Source: Benincasa hispida
Lineage: Eukaryota > Streptophyta > Magnoliopsida > Cucurbitales > Cucurbitaceae
Length of the DNA stretch: 64,000 bases
Direction of reading: 5' to 3'
Assembly (NCBI RefSeq): GCF_009727055.1
Contig: NC_052355.1
Span: forward strand, 4,408,210 to 4,472,209
In this document: positions 26,291-64,000 of the stretch, piece after piece
Numbering within the stretch: position 1 is the stretch's first letter
How the letters are laid out: each line of letters starts with the position of its first letter
The notes under the pieces: model-generated
Database searches by the model: none
Seen by the model: only the letters and a program-made list of their open reading frames with translations
What the model was told of the DNA's origin: nothing
Position numbers and translations under genes: made by a program

Positions 26291-27861
26291 CCCATAATAC
26301 CTGATTTAAAAAATGATTTTTAATTTAGTTATATATATATATGGCTATATCTAATATAACACATAATTTATAGTTTATATTATATTATATATAATATAAC
26401 CTATAGTTTATTATCTCTCATTTAACCTATATTATTTAATATGAATATGTTCATACGAGGTGCTTGACTCTGAATTGAATGAATGTGCTTGACTTGAAGA
26501 AGAAGGGCACCGAACGTTTTTGAAGTAGGAGTCTTTGTGTCTTCAAGGATCTTATGTCTTCAAGGAGCTTCAGAAGTCTCAAAAGTCTTTGGTGAATTCT
26601 CTCTGGGCTCTCTGAATGTAGAATTGTTAACCCCTTGGAACGAGAAGAGCTCCTTTAGCTCTCTGATGGGCTTCATGGTATTGGGCCTAGTTGGCCCATG
26701 GGCCTAATTGGCCCATGGGCCTAATTAATTGGACTTAGGCTTGACCTTGGCATTTTTAGGCCCAAATTAAACCCATATTTGGGCATAACTGGACAACGCC
26801 CAAATTATAACATCAAATTATAACATCAAATTGGGCGAAATTAATTTTACTCAACCCAACGCTTGTGACAAAAACACGTGACGTCATCAAAATTTGTCTT
26901 TAATTTCAATTTAGAACACATGTCAACTCTTAACTGGTCCCAAATTTTATGATTTTGGCATTTTGTCATTAATTTAATAAATGACGGGGCGACCCGTGAT
27001 TGGTCCGAATTTCTCCTCCAACAAATGCCCCTTTTCGAGATTTGTGCATAGATGTGGGTGGATGAATCTCAAAAAGATAAAGTTGACATCGAGATGCAAG
27101 TAATGTCTTGACTTCGATGCTCCCAATTTAATTAAACCGCGAATTTAGTGCACAAGTTTAACTAACATTTGTAATAGAGGACGACCAAACTTTTAATTTA
27201 AGAAAAATCTCAACCTTTATCTCAAACTTAATTTTATTTGGAGAGATAAAATGCTGAAATTCTCAAATTTTTAAAAAAATAAATTTAGGTTTCATCCAAA
27301 ATTAATTTGATTTGGAGACAAAACTTAAAAAATCAGAATTTAAAATGAAAATTGAAGTTTCATCCCTAATTTAATTTGATTTGGAGATTAAAACATAAAA
27401 ACTTTGTTCAAAGAAAGAAATTTGGGATATGGCCAAATTTACAAAAACTTTGAGCATTGTCCCCAATTTAATACGATTTTAGAGATAAAAGTAAAAATTT
27501 TTGAACTTAAATGAAAATTCAAGTTCCATCCCTAATTTAATTTGATTTGGAGATAAAACTAAAAAATTTGGAATTAAAAAACGAAAATTCAAGTTTCACC
27601 CCAGTTTAATTTGATTTGGAGATGAAAACTTCATAATTTTTTATTAAAATGAAAATTCAAGTTTCATCCTCAATTTAATTTGATTTGGAGATAAAACTTA
27701 ATTACTAAAAAAGGTTTGGTACGTGGCCAACAATTTTAAAAAAAGGAGGGGAAGAAAAATAATCAAAGATAAAAATTTGGGGCATGAACTAAATAGAAAA
27801 TCTAAAGTTAACAAAATCATGGATTTTCTGATTTGATTCTGGATTCAGTGAAGCCCCTAAT
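26291..27861. other. Spacer with short duplications and a tandem repeat
   Basis: Contains tandem 'ggcctaattggcccatg' duplications (26680-26730), 'aattataacatca' twice at 26804-26832, and the tandem repeat annotated at 27210-27715. No coding region was seen. Confidence 0.5.
27210..27715. repeat. Tandem repeat, period about 68 bp, about 7 units
   Basis: Each unit contains 'aagtttcatccctaattta' followed by 'atttgatttggagataaaa' and an A-rich tail ending 'aaatgaaaattca'. Units begin near 27208, 27285, 27354, 27450, 27519, 27590 and 27660; one is lengthened by about 30 bp. Confidence 0.8.
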
Positions 27862-34050: not shown

Positions 34051-37000
34051 ATGTTTGATATTCCATTAAATGCCTTTAGTTTGACCGATTTCATACAGTG
34101 GAAAGAGTCCATTAAAACGTATTTCATGGTAAACGACCTCGAATTTGTCATAGAGCAGGAATGTCCTCAAGTCTCGACCCTAGATGCACCGCGAAGTGTT
34201 CGTAATGCATATGAGGGGTAGATGAAGGCTAATTCATTGGCCCGATTTCACATTTTGGCTAGCATACCTGATGCTTTGGCCAAAAAGGTTGAGAGCATGG
34301 TCATTGCACGTGAGATCATGGGCTCATTGCAAGAATTGTTTGAATGTCATTTCTTACTTTTTGAGCACAAAGGGAAGGATGACAATACCCGTAGTGTCAG
34401 TTCCCAAGTTAAACTCCAGGAAGAGAAAGCAAGTGTTGCTGACTCTGTTGAAGTTCATCGTCGAGAAGTGTTCTCTGATATTGAACTTGGAGCTTATTTA
34501 GGTTCTAATACTGATTCCAATACTCTCCTAAAGAGGAGAAAGTCTAAAGACAATAAATATGATTTATTGGTCTTAGAGATATGTTTGGAAAGAATGATGA
34601 TTCTGCATGGATCCTTGATTCGAGTGCTACTAACCACGTTAGTTCCTCTTATCAAGGATTTAGTTCCTGGCAAATGTTGCCATAGGGAGAGATGACTCTT
34701 CGAGTCGATACTGGTGAGGTTGTTTCAGCTATTGTTGTAGGCAGGCTGAAGTTATTTTTGGACAAGAAACGTTATCTGTTACTGGATAATGTTTTTGTAG
34801 TTCCTCATATCAAGAGGAACTTAATCTCGGTTTCTTGTCTCATTGAACAAGGTTATACCGTCTCCTTTTCTGAGAGTAAAGTGTTTATTTTCAAGAATGA
34901 GATGGAGATTGGTTTTGGATCAATGGAGAATAACTTGTATGTACTAAGGCCGTTAGTCATAAAAGCCTTATTTAATACTTAAATGTTCAGTACGTCGACA
35001 ACAGCTAAAAGACCAAAGGTTTCTCCTAAGGAAAACATCCATCTTTGGCATTTAAGGTTAGGTCACATCAACCTTAATAGGATTGAGCAGTTGGTGAAAT
35101 GTAGACTTCTAAAGAGTTTAGAAGAAAACTCCTTGCCGGTGTGTGAATCATGCCTCAAAGGCAAGATGACAAATGACCTTTTACAGAGCCAAGGAAGCCT
35201 TAGAGCTTATACATTATACCTCTATGGTTCGATGAATGTTAAGGCTCGAGGTGGGTATGAATATTTCATCTCTTTCGTAGATTATTATTCAAGGTATGGG
35301 TATCTCTATCTAATGCAACGTAAGTCTGAAACCCTCGACAAGTTCAAGGAGTATAAGGCTGAAGTTGAAAACTTGTTAGGTAAGAAGATAAGAACACTAC
35401 GATCTGATCATGGTGGAGAGTATATGGACCTCCAATTCTAGAACTATATGATAGAAATGGAATTATGTCCTAACTCTTGGCCCCAGGTCAGCAGAATGGT
35501 GTATTAGAAAGAAGAATTAGAACCTTGTTGGACATAGTTCGGTCTATGATGAGTTTTGCTCATCTTCCACACTTGTTTTTGGGTTTTGCAGTAGAGACTG
35601 CATGTCATATTCTGAACAACATTCTCTCGAAAAATGTTTCTGAAACACCTTTTGAGTTGTGGAGAGGCCGTAAAGGTAGTTTATGCTACTTCAGAATTTG
35701 AGGGTGTTCGGCCCACGTGCTTGTGACTAACCCGAAGAAGTTGGAACTGTGTTCGAAAGTTTGCCTCTTTGTAGGCTACCCTAGGGAAATGAGGGGTGGA
35801 TACTTCTATGATCCGAGTGAGAACAAAGTGTTTGTTTCTACAAATTCTATCTTCTTGGAAGAAGACCACATCAGGGATCATAAGCCACGAATTAAGCTTG
35901 TTTTACGTGAGACTTTTAGTGAGACTACTGAGGGTTCAACAAGAGTTATTGAACAGACTGTCAGATCAACAAGAGTTGTTGAGGTCGGTTCATCTAGTCA
36001 ACCAGCTTAAGAGTTGAGACTACCTCGACGTAATGGGAGGGTTATGAACCCACCGGAACGCTACATGGGTTTGACTGAAGCCTATAACATCATTTCTAAT
36101 GATGGGGTTGAGGATCCATTGTCTTTTAAGCAAGCAATGGAGGATGTTGACAAAAATGAGTGGATTAGGGCCATGAACCAAGAAATGGAATCTATGTACT
36201 TCAATTACATCTTGGAGCTTGTGGATCAGCCTGATGGGGTAAAACCTATAGGGTGTAAGAGGATTTACAAGTGAAAACGAGGTGTAGTTGGAAAGGTGCA
36301 AACCTTTAATGCTAGACTCGTGGCAAAGGGTTATACCCAGGTCGAGGGAGTGGGCTATGAGGAAAATTTCTTGCCTGTTGTCATGTTAAAGTTTATCAGG
36401 ATACTTCTATCTATAGCCACATTTTATGATTATGAGATATGGCAAATGGATGTCAAGACTGCCTTTTTTAATGGTAATCTTTAGAAGACTATCTACATGC
36501 CTTAATCAGAGGGGTTCATCATTCCAGATCAAGAGCAAAGAGTTTGCAAGCTTAATAGGTCCATTTATGGACTAAAACAAGCGTCTTGATCGTGGAACAT
36601 TAGATTTGACAGTGCGATCAAATCGTTTGGCTTTGATCAGAACGTTGATGAGCCTTGTGTTTACAAGAAGATCATTAACAACCCAATAGCTTTCTTGATA
36701 CTATGTGTGGATGATATCCTACTCATGGGGAATGATGTAAGGTTTTTGACTGACATTACAAAGTGGCTAGCCGCCTAATTCCAAATGAAAGATTTGGGTG
36801 AGGCATAGTATGTTCTAGGGATCCAGATCATTTGGGATCGTAAGAACAAGAGATTAGCCTTGTCCCAAGCATTATACATCGATAAATGTTGAACAGATAC
36901 AGGATGCAGGATTTCAAGAGGGGTTTGTTACTCTTCAGGCATGGAATTGTATTGTCTAAGGATCAATTTCCGAAGACACCTTAAGAGGTTGAGGAGATGA

Positions 37001-37968: not shown

Positions 37969-39857
37969 TGATGCTGACATGCAGAAATGCATGTCATCTT
38001 AGGCCTTTTACTTAGAATTATGAGGGCTGTTAAGCAGAATATACGGCAATTATGTTAGGAATTTATGAGAAAATGAGCTTGCGTCGTTCAGCATGAAGAA
38101 TCTCGACTAACCCATTATTATGCGTTAAGTGGTCTATTTTTGTAGCTAACACAGGAAGTGGACGCAAACGTGAAAACCGAACTATCGCATAGACGACCGC
38201 ATGTGGAGAAACTCTCCATCGCAAAGGCGAACGCATTCGATCAATGCATAGATGTTGTGGTAATCAGCCGCATGCGTCCATCGCATAGGAGTTGCGCTCG
38301 TTAAGTGATTGCGGTCATCATGTAGAGTTGTGATATTAAGTGAATGCGGTCACTAAATGATTGCAGCTACACGATAACGCATGATAAAGGGATCAACACA
38401 AGGTTGCATCTACCTTGGGAAAAGCAAAAGATGATGTTGACATTTCACCTACCACGCGGTTGGCAGCAGAGATTCAGAAAGGACTAACGCACTGCGAATG
38501 TTAGAATAAGAGCAGTCCATTAATGCTGTCGGCAATCCAGGCTCTATATAAAGAAGCCGATGAGCAGAATTCCAACTTGTTCGGGGATTATCCCTGCAAC
38601 CCAGGGTTCATCCCTGCGATCTAGACAAATGCGTGAGAAGAAGCTCGAGAGTTCTTCACCTTCTTCCTCCATTCCGAGTGATGGCCGAAGCCTTCGACCA
38701 GAGCGAGATCTCAAGAGAGTCAGCTCCTCTGCCCATCCATGGCACCACCGGCAGCCTTGATGCACATTCGCTGGAATCAAGTCATTGCTTTCAGCCGGTA
38801 ATTTCATTTTCTCTTCTTTTCTTATATTGTATTGTATACATTTTGTGATTAAGAAATTAATACATTTTGTGTTCAATACATTTCTATGTGTCCTTCAATT
38901 TTGTCTCCATCTTCTTTACTTAGCATCCTTAACTTTCATTGCATCACTTAGTGAGATTTCTAGAGTATCACCTACTTAGTCATGTGGATTAGAGATATGA
39001 AGCATGTAGCAAACCACCGAGAGGTGTGCATTGTGTGAGTGTGTGAGAAAACCTTATTTGCTTAGTGTGAAGCTGTAGCAATGCCTGTCTATAAGTGGAC
39101 GCAACACTTGTCTATGAGTAAAGTCAACAACAATTAACTGCCTGAGAAGATAAGTGGTTGGTCGCATTAAGCAATGTAAGCTATTGTTCATTAGAGATAG
39201 GAATAATCTTATGTCAGCAAAGTTCATGTAGTTACCTTATCCTATCAGCGCATCATTCATCATTTAGGCTTACTCGAGAGAGTAGTCTAAAACCTAAATC
39301 TAAGACTCGAGAGAGCGGTTTGGAACGCATAGGCAAGAATGGGGAACTTAGAGATAAGCTCCATTTGCTTTCACACAGCATATGCACCTTATGGATAGGA
39401 TATTACATGCGTCCACGAAGTAGGACATGGTGGTTGTATACGGTCATCTCGACAGTTATGCATACCCAATGCATACGTCTTAGATTTAGGCTTTTAGTGT
39501 GTGTAGCATGATCGCATGGCTTGCGTTGACTAAAGTTGCCCTTGTGGTCACTTTTAAGGGTTGCAATGAAATCGTCTCCACATTCTATCTATTTTCCCAT
39601 TCATTTGTTTCATTTCATGAGTTGTCGTGTATCTACCTCTCTTTCATATTCTCATTACGTTGTCTGTGAGCTAGGAGTAGGAGTAGTGTTAGCTTAGCAA
39701 CCTCCCATCAATTCTTTTATTCAACTGCTGCATGCACATTACCGCATTCATCAAGCTACAAGTCCCTGAGTTCGACCTTGGATCACCCGAGAAACTTGCA
39801 TTCGCGTTATACTTGGCGTGAGCGCAAGAAAACTTGTGACAGGACGCATGGTCATCA
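37969..39857 (+). mobile_element. Athila-type LTR, forward
   Basis: Starts TGATGCTGACATGCAG and probably ends GGTCATCA at 39857; a TATA box is near 38545. It resembles the 16920 and 48563 LTRs at the termini and in blocks such as 'ctgagttcgacc' (39767), but is a different subfamily. The section 38685-39700 is repeated closely at 62918-64000 and, reversed, at 41357-42027. The exact right end is uncertain because the following 140 bp look like the start of a reversed LTR. No gene lies here; ORFs such as 38560-38760 are chance. Confidence 0.65.
38545..38552 (+). promoter_or_regulatory. TATA box of the Athila-type LTR
   Basis: 'gctctatataaagaagcc' matches a strong plant TATA box in the expected middle part of the LTR. 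Confidence 0.55.
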
Positions 39858-39998: not shown

Positions 39999-41356
39999 AG
40001 TTTTTGACACCCCCAAACTTAAAATCATGCTTGTCCTCAAGCATGCGTTATACTCAAGAAATTCTAACTCACCTTCCGGCTTTCCTTTGCGATGACCAGC
40101 TTCTCAGAATATAATTTACTCATGCCTCTAACCATCACCGCAATGCTCTCCTCCACTTTGACTGCTTCTTCAAAAAGATCTTTTCTAAGTTTTGATCCGG
40201 CAAGCCTTTGCTAAAATTTTTTTTATTCATTCATCGCAACTTTGCGTTTAGCTTTTGAGAATGCATTCATTCAAAACACTTCAAAAATTTGTGATGACTT
40301 ATTCAAATGCAGCGTTGAACTTGGTTACGCTCTTCGTTTTGGCTTACCCCCACGTATGTCATGCGGGCATCCAACTTCGGCCGCGTTTCATATTCAACTC
40401 AACTCTTGTCTCGTTTGATTTGGCTTGCGCCGGACAGAGGAGTTTCACTTATGCGTTGATTCTGGCGACTTACCTTCATTTTGGCTTGCCTCCACGTGTG
40501 TCATGCGAACATCCAACTATGGGTAAGTGCCTTTCACAACTTAACTCTTATCAACATGGGTTTCCCCATTGCGTCGACAATGGAGTTATTATTCTGAAAA
40601 AATTATTTTCGCTTTTTTTTTTCTTCAAATGATCGCAATGAAATGAACACAATTCTTTAAGACCGCTGCCACCCCAAAGTTAGAGGTTGGCAGTGTTCTC
40701 ACCACAAAGCTAAAAGCAAAATTACAGGAATGCGGTAACAAACGTTTGAGCAAAGGTTTACACAAAATTAAATTTAAGACTTTCAAAATTTGAAGAAGCT
40801 AATAAAAGTAAGAAATGCCTTGCGATGATTAATTAGAAGATGCAGTGAATTATACGTACCATCATAGAAACATCGCAAAACAATGCAATTGAGAAAAATA
40901 GAATTTCAAAAGAATAATGCATACAGGATATCAAGGAAAGAACCTTAGATGGAACAACGCATGCGATTATGTGTTGGAATCCACGCGATCGAAGCCATGC
41001 GTTGAAGGATGAAAGGAATTCTTCTGTCGTACAACGTACTGAGGAGACTGATTGTCGCACCTGCAAGGAACAATCGCACCACAACAAGGAAGCAGCCATA
41101 TATACAAAATAACAATAAAAATAACCTATACTAGGAAAGCAAGATAAAGATAGAGTAGAAGACATCCCTGGAAAAGTAGGAGTGTTGTCACCGCAAGGAG
41201 TCTTCCATGTAGGAGATTACTCTCAATTGCTTGGGTCAAGGAGCTGGTCCTGACCATTGGAACTTCTGGCAATTGTTGGGCGCATGTTGGCCACCATGTG
41301 CTTAGAATTACCTTCAGCACTTTTGCGACTGATTGCCCTTCTACCTTGGGGTCAAT
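39999..41356 (-). mobile_element. 3' internal region of reversed Athila element
   Basis: Homologous over its length with 50255-51400: the purine tract 'aagtttgggggtg' (minus strand, 40021-40009), then 'cttgaggacaagcatg', then two copies of a motif of about 45 bp (40336-40377 and 40476-40522). It is noncoding 3' sequence after pol. The right part (41170-41356) is also Athila-like, then breaks to LTR. Confidence 0.65.
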
Positions 41357-42027
41357 GTGATCATGCTACAGACACTAAAAGCCTAAATCTAGGACGTATG
41401 CGGTGGGTATGCATAAGTGTCAAGATGACCACATACAACCACCATATCCTACTTCTTGGACGCATGAAATATCCTATCCGTAGGGTGCATACGCTATGTG
41501 AAAGCAAACATAGCTTATCTCTAAGTTCCCCATTCTTGCCTATGCGTTCCAAACCGCTCTCTCGAGTCTTAGATTTAGGTTTTAGACTACTCTCTCGAGT
41601 AAGCCTAAATGATGAATGATGCGCTGATAGGATAAGGTAACTACATGAACCTGTCTCTTATACACATCTAGATGTGTATAAGAGACAGATGCTAAGTAAA
41701 GAAGATGAAGACAAAATTGAAGGACACATAGAAATGTATTGAACACAAAATGTATTAATTTCTTAATCACAAAATGTATACAATACAATATAAGAAAAGA
41801 AGAGAAAATTAAATGACCGACTGGAAGCAATGACTTGCTTCCAGCGGATGTGCGCCAAGGCTGCTGGTGGTACCATGGATGGGTGGAAGAGCTGACTCTC
41901 TCGAGATCTAGCTCCGGTCGAAGGCTTCGGTTGTCACTCAAAATGGAGGAAGGAGGTGAAGAACTCTCAAACTTCTTCTCATGCATTTGTCTGGATCGCA
42001 AGGATGAACCCTGGGTTGCAGGGAAAG
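41357..42027 (-). mobile_element. Athila-type LTR fragment, reversed, with adapter inside
   Basis: Reverse complement of the section 38590-39500 of the forward LTR, but cut at both ends and lacking the 295 bp corresponding to 38927-39221. The gap is filled by the 38-bp adapter at 41651-41688. A long ORF across it (41582-42103, minus) is spurious. Confidence 0.85.
41651..41688. other. Tn5 mosaic-end palindrome (Nextera mate-pair junction adapter)
   Basis: CTGTCTCTTATACACATCT (41651-41669) is directly followed by its reverse complement (41670-41688), 38 bp with no mismatch. This is the 19-bp hyperactive Tn5 mosaic end in head-to-head form, identical to the circularisation junction of the Nextera mate-pair library kit. 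It is not plant sequence. Translated on the minus strand it gives VSYTHLDVYKRQ, a well-known contaminant peptide in protein databases. Confidence 0.97.
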
Positions 42028-42542
42028 GACAACCTCTACCCCATAAATGAGAGAGTACAATGTGACTCTTGTAAGGGTACGATGAATGGTGTGATAAGCC
42101 CATAACGCTTCACCAATCTTTTCGTGCTAATCTCTTTTCGACTTAGAGACAATTTTCTTCAGCACGTTGCACAACGTCTTGTTGAATGCCTTTGCCAACC
42201 CATTTGCGGCGGCGTTATACATGGATGACTTGTACTACTTGAATTTGAATTTCTCACACAACCTGTCTATCAAGCTATTGGATTGTCTCCCATTATCTGT
42301 CACGATTCGATGGGGGATACCAAACCGATAGATGATGTGAGTGTGGATAAAGTCCACCACATTCTCTTTCTTAGCTTCCCTTAAAGGGATAGTCTCAACC
42401 CATCTTGAAAAGTAATCAGTGGCTGCGAGGATATAAGAATGCTCTGCTGATGACTTAGGTGTTATAGGGCCAACTAGATCAAGCCCCCATGCTTCAAAAG
42501 GCCATGAGGCTATAGTCAGGTGCAGAGGTTCGGTAGCAACGA
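42028..42542 (-). pseudogene. Tat-lineage Gypsy integrase, fragment
   Basis: The minus strand encodes FEAWGLDLVGPI, an ILAATDYFSRWVE block, IPHRIVTDNGRQ and, after a stop, NAAANGLAKAFN, the D-D-(E) core of integrase; the catalytic Glu region is changed (usually NGQAEA). Downstream (42180-42028) it gives the C-terminal LKKIVSKSKRD...IGEALWAYHT block. Two frameshifts or stops. It continues the element whose upstream part is at 44131-47084, separated by a Copia piece. It breaks at 42028 against the Athila LTR fragment. Confidence 0.85.
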
Positions 42543-44032
42543 TTAGCTGAGTAACTATCGTATAGTCAACTCTTAAACGATCATTTAGTCTCTCAACGAC
42601 TATCGCTTAGTAAAAACAATTTTCACTTGATAGCCCTTTTTTGTGAGTAATTTCCGAATGGATCAACTACTAATTTTGGAAACCACTTTTCCTTTTATCT
42701 CACGCTACCATAAAACTTCCAATAACCTCCCACTCAATTAGTTATTAGAGAAAAAGAATTAATTATCATATAATTAATATATTACAAATAAATATGATAA
42801 CCAACTTATAAATTATATTTATAACCTATAGTTTTAATAGTTTATCGTATGAAACATATAAAATATAGTTCTTTTTCTATTTTATGGTACTTAATATAAA
42901 TCATATTTATATTAAATTCTCCAATTAATGTATCTAATACATCACCACAATTATATCATATATAATTGAATTTCCTCTTGTTAATTTGAACACTTCAAAC
43001 TAACCCAAAATTTGATTCTCAACTTGAACCCATTGAGCTACCAAAGGCACCTTATGGACCTGTGGCTTGAAGCTCCAACGGTATGTGAATAGCTGACTAA
43101 ACTCTTTAGTTACGAGATCCACCATCCGTTAACTGCCAGGCACTCCACTAAAGACTGATAATTACACTCTTTTCACTACAGATATATTTTTGTGTCCATA
43201 TAACCAATCAACAGTGCAATAACCCTTCACAAATTGCTTGTAAGTACACCTAGGCCAATTTACCATTTTGCCCCTATAGTTACATCTAACTTCTTAAGTA
43301 CCACTGATTCCTCTAATGAACAATAAGTCATAGTCCTACTATGACTGAGTCCTCTCTTCCAAAGAGTGGGTGTGGGGAATCAGCCCTTAAGGGAGCAATT
43401 TATCTACTTACTCCTACTTCGGGGAAAGAGTAAATCCATCTTATGTAACTGCGTTCCTAGCTCCCCAATCAGAAAAATCCCTAAAAAGGTAGGCTTGTTG
43501 AGTTGGCAATTTGGCCATTCTCATACTAATCAAAGGACCGTACTCATAGGTAGGAGTTCCCAAAACAGTCAGGATTAAGGTCGTGTCACCTATGGTCATT
43601 TTAGTGAAATGTAAGTCTCAATTATCAACGACGTTATATAAAGAGACTAATCATCTCGTGGTCCGGTCTTATACAAACTCTTTGTATAGGACATCTCCAC
43701 TCGCATGTCTCCATATGAATGGTCAGGATCAGACCATCTGTAGCACTTTAAAACACTTGTAAATATCTACAAAGCGGGCCGTATATGTAGTGTCACCAGG
43801 ATAAGGTATCCCTCCTTTATCCTTATACTACAGACCATTTAGGTTATTACTTAAGGCATGATCCACATGTATGTCTCACATACATGCTTAAGTTTACATG
43901 AAATAACCATAGATCTTAGTTTATTGGATATGAGTAAATGCAAATAAAATAACACTTATTTTATTAATAACAATGTGTACAAACTGTTACAAACTACAAG
44001 ATTCTGGAAAAATTAGGACACAAATCCCAACA
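42543..44032 (-). mobile_element. Copia 3' LTR, truncated, reversed
   Basis: Minus strand starts TGTTGGGATTTGTGTCC at 44032 and follows the family LTR to about 42543, including the CGAT-motif zone (42545-42615). The last several hundred bp of the LTR are missing. Confidence 0.8.
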
Positions 44033-48562: not shown

Positions 48563-50254
48563 TGATGCATTATTTTATGCGATGAAATAATGGTAAGGAT
48601 TGCGTTGGTGGAAAATGCATTGAGCATGCAAGTTTTCTCAGTAAGATCCAAGTATAAATCCTACTGAGTTTCCTGGTAAGCCCAGGGTTGAACTCAAGGA
48701 CTAAGGAAAACACTATGCGATGGTAATTTATAGATCACTGTGCAGTAACAAATAAATCAAAGAGTTGGTTGGTTTGTTGTTTACAGTATAAAATGTATGC
48801 GGCAGAGTTAAGAAAAGAGTTAATATTACGAAAGATGCGATGAATATGTGGGGGAATGGGTTGAGAAGGGGTTTAGCTAACACTTCCTAGGATTTTGTTC
48901 ATGTTATGCGATCATGCTACACACATACAACAACAAATCATCTCTCAATGCAAATGCTACGACTTCTAGTTTTAGAACGCATGTGATGATGTCTATAGGA
49001 CTTACATCTAAGCCTCTATTCTTGTCTATGCGATGATGAATGACATACACACATACAAGCCAACCGCATATTACCATAATCTATCTCTAGGGTGCATGCG
49101 ATGCATGTTGGCAAACATAGCTTATCTCTAAGTCCCTATCTCTTGCTTATGCAGATCTAATCTTGCTTTCTTGAGTCTACATTCTAACCTAGCTCTCTCA
49201 AGACTTAGGTTCTTTCTTTAGACTCTCTCTCAAGTAGCTCTAAAGGGTGTTGGGCGCAACATAAGACAAGATGATTGCATGCAATGAAGATCCTAGGTCA
49301 TATTAGCTAAGTACTTCTCAACCCATTCGGTAGATTTAGCTACTCATACGTGTTTTAAAGAGAGTGAAAAAATGTAGATAAGAAAATTCCATTTTATAAA
49401 TATATAATCGAAGTACAGAATGACAATGCGGAATAAGAATAAAGAGCCTGGTGGCAATTTCTTGCTTCCCAAGGCTTTTACACTATTCTTCGCTACTCTG
49501 CTCAAAAGATAATCTTGCTATCGCAAGAGTCGACCCTCTCTCTATTTTTCCACGCTCCCTAGCACTCTCTCGAGTTGACCAGGATGATCTTCCGGCGTCT
49601 CTTCCCTTCTCTCGCTTCCACCTTCTAAGTATAAGAAACTAAGAACAAGGCTAAGTATCGTCTAAATGGTGAACTCTAGAAACTGGGCGAATTGAACGAA
49701 CTCTTTCACTGAAGCTGGCCTTTGGTATTTATAGAGCTTTAGGGTGAAAAGCTTCTTCTCTCTTATGATTGTACTGATGGGATGACATTAATTCTCTATC
49801 TGATGCGCCGAATAATTGTCACCGAAAAGTTGAGTGTACTTGCTACAGTAGGTTGTTAACGACTTGTCAACTTAATTTGGAATCGACCATCATCAGCTTT
49901 TTGTCCCATCATGATTTGTTAAGCTTTCACCCAGATGCACCCACCTTGATGTGCCGGCTCTACGCAGCCACCTTCTTGAGTAGATATTCGCGAGCGCAAA
50001 TGATCGCATAGCCTTGCGGTCACAATCTCTTAATGCACTCAGACGTTAATTTCTTCGGATCGCATTTTCGCCTTGCGTCAATGCATTTTCTGCATGAGAA
50101 TACATAAGTTAGCCGTTTTAATGCGATGGACGTATGCGATCGCAATGTTGTGAACTTGATGCTTTTGGACGCAATATTGTATATTTTTACCATCACAATC
50201 CTGCATTGTTTTATAACTTTGCACTGTAATAACGTGCATTTCTGCCCTTTATCA
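48563..50254 (-). mobile_element. Athila 3' LTR, reversed
   Basis: A 1,692-bp LTR on the minus strand from TGATAAAGGGCAG (50254) to GCATCA (48563), next to a purine tract at 50267-50255 ('aatttgggggtg'). It is the same subfamily as the solo LTR at 16920-18593. A TATA box lies at 49727-49734 on the minus strand. Confidence 0.88.
49727..49734 (-). promoter_or_regulatory. TATA box of the Athila 3' LTR
   Basis: Minus strand CTCTATAAATACC, the same place and context as 17431 in the solo LTR. Confidence 0.55.
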
Positions 50255-62178: not shown

Positions 62179-62917
62179 CGCTTCTTGCTGATACACTCGA
62201 ACACCACAAATCAGTCATAGACATGAATCCGAAGGAACATGAATCAGTCATAGTGTGTAACCCCAAGGCCCACAAATTAGTCATAATGTACACATATACA
62301 GTCTTGTGTGTACACCTGCCCTGATGAGAAAAGCTAACCGAAACCCTATAACTTAGCATGCATCAATTTCCATATAACTCATGTGTTATATTTTACAGTC
62401 GTTTATCTTAGGGGTAAAATTTCCAGTATATCCTAAGTCAATAGTGTATTCATCATGGTCAAAATAGTCCAATCAATCTAAAATAGATAGTCCAATCAGT
62501 CTAAAATTAACAGTTCAATCAGTCTAGTTTAAATAGTCCAATCAATCCAAATTAAACAATCAAATTAGTCTAAAATAAACGGTCTCATCAGTTTAAATAA
62601 AAAGTCCAATCCAGTCAGTCAATGCTATAAATCATGCAGTTCAATCAATCATAAGTTATCAGCCCAAGAAATCTTAAGCAAGTAGTCCAAGTAATCAACT
62701 AAACAATCCAAGGGGTAGGGACGACTTGTCTGAAGGAAAACCAGTAGAAGGACACTTACATCAAATTGCAAGTCCAAATATTATTCTCCAAGCAAACAAT
62801 CGGTAACTGACTAAAGAATGTTGAATAGAACCAACAATACAAAACCAAAAATCTAAACTAATCCAAAAGAGCCCTAAATTTAATTCATCAATTCCTACGA
62901 ACACTCCAAATAACTTA
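62179..62917. other. Spacer with short degenerate repeats
   Basis: No gene seen. 62200-62290 has three 'aatcagtcata' type motifs; 62466-62700 is annotated separately. Confidence 0.5.
62466..62700. repeat. Degenerate tandem repeat, about 25-bp unit
   Basis: Around nine imperfect copies of 'atagtccaatcagtctaaa' with variable spacing, including clear ones at 62467, 62487, 62510, 62537 and 62610. Confidence 0.7.
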
Positions 62918-64000
62918 CTGAAGCCTTCGACCGGAGCTAGATTTCGAGAGAGTCAGCTCCTCCGCCCATCCATGGCACCACCGGCAGCCTTGACGCACAT
63001 CCGCTGGAAGTAAGTCTTTGCTTCCAGCTGGTCATTTCATTTTCTCTTCTTTTCTTATATTGTATTGTATTACATTTTGTGATTAAGGAATTAATACATT
63101 ATGTGTTCAATGCATTTCTGTGTTTCCTTCGATTCCATCTCCACCTTTCTTTACTTAGCGTCCATAACTTCTTTGCATCACTTAGTGAGATTGCTAGAGT
63201 ATCGCATACTTAGTCATATGGATTAGGGATATAAAGCATGTAGGAAACCACTGAGAGGTGTGCGTTGCGTGAGTGTGTGAGTAAACCTTATTTGCTTAAT
63301 GTGAAGCTTTAGCAACGCCTTTCTATAGGCGGATGCAATGCTTGTCTATGAGTAAAGTCAGCAACAACTAACTGCCCGAGAGGGTAAGTGGTTGGTTGCA
63401 ATAAGCAATGTAAGTTATTGTTCACTAGAGATAGGAATAATCTTATGTCAGCAAAGTTCATGCATTTACCTTATCTTATGAGCGCTTCATTCATCATTTA
63501 GGCATACTTGAGATAGTAGTCTAAAATCCAAATCTAAGACTCGAGAGAGCAGATTCGAACGCATAAGCAAGAATGAGGAACTTAGAGATAAGCTCCATTT
63601 TCTATCACACAGCATATGCACCCTACGGATAAGATATTGCATGCATTCAGGAAGTAGGATACGGTGGTATGAGGCTAGCACGCTCATGCGGCGAAAGCAC
63701 GTGAGCGGGTTATGGAGGTTTAGGCAGGCATAGGCTTCTCGACAATATCACAGATACATCGCATACGTCCTAGAGTAAGGCTCAAGTGTGTGTAGTATGA
63801 TTGCATGGCTTGCGTTGACTAAGGTTGCCCTTGCGGTCACTCTTAAGGGTTGCAATGAAGACATCTCCACACTTTATCTATTTTTCCATCCATTTACTTC
63901 CTGTCAATAGTTGTCGTGTCTCTACCTCTCATTCTCATTCTCATTATGTTGTCTGTTAGTTAGGAGTAGTGTTAGCTTAACAACCCCTCCAATGCACATT
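62918..64000 (+). mobile_element. Athila-type LTR fragment, runs off the window
   Basis: From 'tgaagccttcgaccggagc' it follows the forward LTR at 38685-39720 closely, starting mid-LTR. A 63-bp stretch at 63668-63742 is different, so a local insertion or replacement lies there. It contains the 295 bp that are missing at the adapter in 41357-42027. No gene. Confidence 0.8.

What the first reader, a model, noticed from the sequence alone, without database searches (positions are those of the whole stretch)
41651..41688. Laboratory adapter left in the assembly: Tn5 mosaic ends head to head
Nineteen bases of the hyperactive Tn5 mosaic end are followed at once by their exact reverse complement, 38 bp without a mismatch. 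This exact 38-mer is the junction adapter of Nextera mate-pair libraries. It does not belong to a plant genome, so the contig is chimeric or wrongly gap-filled here. Any conclusion crossing 41650/41689, including adjacency of the elements on each side, should be held back.
Basis: partly seen in the sequence, partly recalled or inferred. Interest (0 to 1): 0.92.

Follow-up and report, generated by a model that had tools for sequence, protein, structure and literature searches.

The report
Sequencing adapter left in an assembly
A 38-base piece of laboratory sequencing adapter was built into this genome assembly inside a repeated element, where it stands in for about 295 missing bases; it is a technical error, not biology.

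Summary
The 19-base Tn5 mosaic end and its reverse complement lie back to back at 41651-41688, and nothing else in the window comes within 3 mismatches. This is a mate-pair junction adapter, most likely Nextera. The same 38-mer is in at least 120 stretches from 19 bacterial assemblies of diverse groups, with no match in 20,395 E. coli genome records or 50,697 phage records.

The flanks are not unrelated DNA. They are collinear halves of one dispersed repeat (copy A, 41355-42024). Two other copies in the window (38591-39517 and 62917-63668) keep about 295 bases where A has the adapter. The adapter also sits inside a patch (41512-41809) that differs from copy B at 1 of 260 positions, while the rest of A differs at 46 of 372. 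I infer that a gap in A was closed with adapter-bearing reads from B or a near-identical copy, joined through the palindromic adapter.

So 41512-41809 should be treated as unknown sequence. Larger-scale adjacency is probably sound but unproven without reads. This is an ordinary assembly artefact.

The parts
41651..41669 (+). Tn5 mosaic end, 19 bases (first half of the junction adapter)
   Evidence: exact match
41670..41688 (-). Tn5 mosaic end, 19 bases, reverse complement (second half of the junction adapter)
   Evidence: exact match; inverted pair I2
41512..41650 (.). left part of the borrowed-looking patch: 139 bases identical to copy B
   Evidence: 0 mismatches with 39222-39360 (reverse strand); copies B and C differ at 15 of these 139
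41689..41809 (.). right part of the borrowed-looking patch: 121 bases, 1 mismatch with copy B (at 41708)
   Evidence: copies B and C differ at 10 of 119 aligned bases there
41355..42024 (.). copy A of a dispersed repeat, interrupted by the adapter
   Evidence: inverted pairs I1 and I2; blastn
38591..39517 (.). copy B of the repeat, opposite orientation, without the adapter
   Evidence: 93.6% (296 bases) and 91.7% (337 bases) identity to the two halves of A
38927..39221 (.). 295 bases kept in copy B that are absent from copy A at the adapter
62917..63668 (.). copy C of the repeat (its match with B runs on to 63985), also keeping about 294 bases at the place of the adapter
41582..42109 (-). spurious open frame that reads through the adapter as VSYTHLDVYKRQ
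   Evidence: stop-to-stop list

Best explanation
Mate-pair junction adapter (most likely Nextera) incorporated during assembly. In the library, transposase puts a 19-base mosaic end on each fragment end, and circularisation joins two of them into a 38-base palindrome (published). Inferred here: copy A of a dispersed repeat had a gap. Untrimmed mate-pair reads from copy B, or a near-identical copy, extended both edges of the gap until they ran into the adapter. The adapter is its own reverse complement, so the two adapter ends overlapped and the gap was closed through it. That dropped about 295 bases and left roughly 139 and 121 bases of borrowed sequence beside it. Shown: the 38-mer, the collinear flanks, the missing segment and the borrowed-looking patch. 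Inferred: the gap-closing step and the source of the reads. The confidence given is for the adapter artefact; the detailed route, with reads borrowed from B, I hold at about 0.8.
For: Exact 38-mer, alone in the window. A paper prints this 38-mer as the biotin-labelled ring adapter that circularises sonicated fragments (PMC7357533, passages). NextClip describes the Nextera 19-base adaptor joined in pairs, the 38-base search and misleading unclipped reads in scaffolding (PMC3928519, part 1 of 2 of the text). The 19-mer is the Tn5MErev oligo (PMC4248319, passages). Of 147 sites in the 120 genome-contig loci, 35 repeat the start of the right flank in the left flank, against 2 of 2000 random places. 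N-runs lie within 400 bases of 32 of the 147, a modest excess over 642 of 5000 random places. Flanks collinear with copies B and C, with 295 and about 294 bases missing. The longest A-B run with at most 1 mismatch is 260 columns and spans the adapter; 0 of 20,000 permutations reach it.
Against: No reads were available, so the joining step is not observed. The organism and its sequencing method are unknown. Six requests to search the window's own genome did not complete, so I could not see whether the assembly holds more copies. The window site is not of the repeated-flank kind seen at 35 of 147 bacterial sites. The A-B homogeneous patch could in principle be gene conversion, and its one mismatch (41708) means that B itself need not be the source.
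Confidence: 0.97

Rival explanations
1. True chimera: the adapter joins two DNA pieces from different genomic places, through ligation of two different fragments or a false contig join.
For: NextClip counts chimeric inserts among the faults of mate-pair libraries (PMC3928519). The flanks are repetitive, so a join between two different copies of the same repeat cannot be excluded.
Against: Both flanks continue one repeat in the same order and orientation, with only about 295 bases missing. The outer flanks are about equally far from copy B, 19 of 157 and 27 of 215, as one copy would be. A single circularised fragment would give the flanks in swapped order (inference from the protocol), which is not seen.
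Confidence: 0.15
2. A real insertion in the organism: a Tn5-type element with nothing between its ends, from a transposon-mutagenised line.
For: The ends face outward as in a real insertion.
Against: The 9 bases on either side differ (TACATGAAC and ATGCTAAGT), whereas Tn5 makes a 9-base duplication (PMC4248319). There is no cargo, and the same paper says the intervening DNA must be long enough to bring the ends together. About 295 bases of the host repeat are missing. The mosaic end replaced the wild-type ends in vitro.
Confidence: 0.01
3. The B-identical patch around the adapter is a real gene-conversion tract between the inverted copies A and B, and the adapter merely fell inside it.
For: A and B are inverted copies about 1.8 kb apart, an arrangement in which conversion is plausible (general knowledge).
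Against: The patch spans the adapter with 139 bases on one side and 121 on the other, as read-length extension from both edges would give; an independent tract would have to coincide with it.
Confidence: 0.1

Closest known systems
Nextera mate-pair junction adapter left in assemblies
   Same: A 19-base mosaic end and its reverse complement, 38 bases. The identical 38-mer lies in the contigs and scaffolds of 19 bacterial assemblies.
   Different: Here the flanks show a missing segment; 35 of 147 bacterial sites instead show a repeated flank, and the other 112 were not examined for missing sequence.
Biotin-labelled ring adapter of another mate-pair protocol (PMC7357533)
   Same: The same 38 letters.
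   Different: There it is used to circularise sonicated fragments, with ligase; which protocol made this assembly is unknown.
Tn5 / IS50 transposon ends
   Same: The mosaic end is a 19-base substitute for the Tn5 end sequences (PMC4248319); that it is a hybrid of the outside and inside ends is recalled.
   Different: Engineered sequence, no cargo, no 9-base target duplication here.

Membership tests
Nextera mate-pair junction adapter | 19-base mosaic end, exact | tested here: met
   oligo sequence in PMC4248319
Nextera mate-pair junction adapter | two copies, forward and reverse complement, joined as 38 bases | tested here: met
   structure described in PMC3928519 without letters in the part read; the letters are printed in PMC7357533 for another mate-pair protocol
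Nextera mate-pair junction adapter | found in assemblies of diverse organisms, as a reagent would be | tested here: met
   no match
Nextera mate-pair junction adapter | present in mate-pair reads only, absent from reads of other libraries | not testable with these tools
   no reads held
genomic Tn5-type insertion | 9-base target duplication | tested here: not met
   TACATGAAC and ATGCTAAGT flank the 38-mer
genomic Tn5-type insertion | DNA between the two ends | tested here: not met
   0 bases between the arms

The most novel reading that the evidence does not exclude
Apart from the adapter, the inverted copies A and B recently exchanged sequence, so that part of the B-identical tract 41512-41809 is a real gene-conversion tract.
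Probability: 0.08. Interest if true: 0.15.

Novelty: not a real feature. Interest (0 to 1): 0.06.

Why it matters
It matters only for curation. The 38 bases should be masked, 41512-41809 treated as a gap of unknown length, and frames read through the adapter (VSYTHLDVYKRQ) not taken as protein. It also shows a way to judge such sites without reads: comparing the flanks with other copies of the same repeat helps to tell a local false gap closure from a true chimera, and suggests how far the borrowed sequence reaches.

Tried and rejected
Natural transposon insertion: rejected for lack of target duplication and cargo. Simple read-through of one circularised fragment: rejected because the flanks are in genomic order with a gap, not swapped, and the right flank's start is not repeated in the 400 bases to the left. 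Chance: rejected. Other adapter, linker or primer strings in the window: none but the 8-base Hi-C motif, which is too short to mean anything. The first flank classification probably counted runs of N as repeats (137 of 2000 random places); it was redone without N, and I use only the window's own row. The N-run count first had no control; one search gave one and the excess is only modest (32 of 147 against 642 of 5000), so it weighs little. The hypergeometric value used boundaries chosen after looking; the permutation replaces it. Paper searches for the peptide read from the adapter (0 papers), and for adapter contamination and gap filling (listings only), gave nothing that I used; the listings served to pick the papers read.

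Full report
Observation. The 38 bases at 41651-41688 are CTGTCTCTTATACACATCT followed directly by its reverse complement. Allowing up to 3 mismatches, the 19-mer has 2 matches in the 64,000 bases, both here; shuffles give 0.02 on average. There is no N in the window.

Identity. The 19-mer is the Tn5 mosaic-end oligo Tn5MErev (PMC4248319, passages). NextClip describes the Nextera mate-pair adaptor as 19 bases put on both fragment ends by transposase, joined at circularisation and searched for as a 38-base pair, one forward and one reverse complement (PMC3928519, part 1 of 2 of the text); that part does not print the letters, and that these exact 38 bases are the Nextera junction adapter is recalled. 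The exact 38-mer is printed in PMC7357533, the only paper that a search of the held library found with it, as a biotin-labelled ring adapter for circularising sonicated fragments of about 4 kb (passages). So the reagent is certain, and Nextera is the likelier of at least two protocols. Skewer also says that trimming of these adapters is essential (PMC4074385, passages).

Spread. By their titles they come from 19 assemblies of diverse bacteria, such as Scytonema, Ideonella, Enterococcus, Streptomyces and Collinsella (counted by eye; two are Enterococcus and two Streptomyces). It is in 7 stretches of viral contigs, on 6 contigs, and in 5 of 72,556 plasmid records, with no match in 20,395 E. coli genome records or 50,697 phage records (megablast, which needs 28 exact bases). 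That pattern follows sequencing practice, not descent. Of 147 sites in the 120 genome-contig loci, 35 repeat the start of the right flank within the 400 bases to the left, where 2 of 2000 random places do; 1 of 147 has an exact 9-base duplication. N-runs lie within 400 bases of 32 of 147 sites and of 642 of 5000 random places, a modest excess. The repeated flanks fit junction reads of short circles; some may reflect clusters of adapters.

What happened in this window. The flanks are two halves of one repeat. The left half, 41355-41650, matches 39222-39517 reversed (93.6%), and the right half, 41688-42024, matches 38591-38927 reversed (91.7%). A third copy at 62917-63668 matches parts of both halves, at 86.9 and 89.4%. 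Copies B and C keep 295 and about 294 bases between the two halves, which A lacks. The order and orientation are those of one continuous element. A single circularised fragment would give the reverse order, so I infer that two adapter-bearing ends met.

The patch. Mismatches between A and B are not spread evenly. In the 139 bases left of the adapter there are none, and in the 121 bases to the right there is 1; outside, there are 19 in 157 and 27 in 215. A run of 260 columns with at most 1 mismatch was reached in 0 of 20,000 permutations. These stretches are not simply conserved: B and C differ at 15 of the left 139 bases and at 10 of 119 aligned bases on the right. The simplest reading is that reads from B, or from an almost identical copy elsewhere, were used to extend both edges of a gap in A, and that the palindromic adapter closed it. 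Gene conversion between A and B is possible but would have to coincide with the adapter. The similar distance of the two outer flanks from B (19 of 157 and 27 of 215) fits one copy A on both sides, so adjacency beyond the repeat is probably right, though only reads can show it.

Context. The neighbourhood holds retroelement remains: an integrase core domain at 42235-42603 on the minus strand and a retroviral SH3-like domain at 35702-36007; 3 of the 5 frames scanned had no Pfam match. The organism was not identified. Requests to search the window's own genome did not complete.

Verdict. A known kind of laboratory artefact.

Noticed in passing
41582-42109 (-): A 175-residue stop-to-stop frame reads through the adapter as VSYTHLDVYKRQ; such adapter peptides could enter protein predictions.
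   Followed up: partly
38591-39517 and 41355-42024: Two copies of one repeat in opposite orientation with about 1.8 kb between them; with copy C (62917-63985) at least three copies in this window, kind of element not determined.
   Followed up: partly
41469-41545 and 49076-49152: A short direct match (77%) on either side of the retroelement remains that begin near 42.2 kb; possibly old long terminal repeats.
   Followed up: no
27274-27401 and 27460-27698: Tandem arrays with a period of 69 bases.
   Followed up: no
L048, L082, L092, L100, L112 (bacterial assemblies): Several junction adapters in single 8-kb stretches of Enterococcus sp. 10A9_DIV0425 and Scytonema tolypothrichoides, in each of these five with at least one pair less than 150 bases apart; these public assemblies seem heavily affected.
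   Followed up: partly
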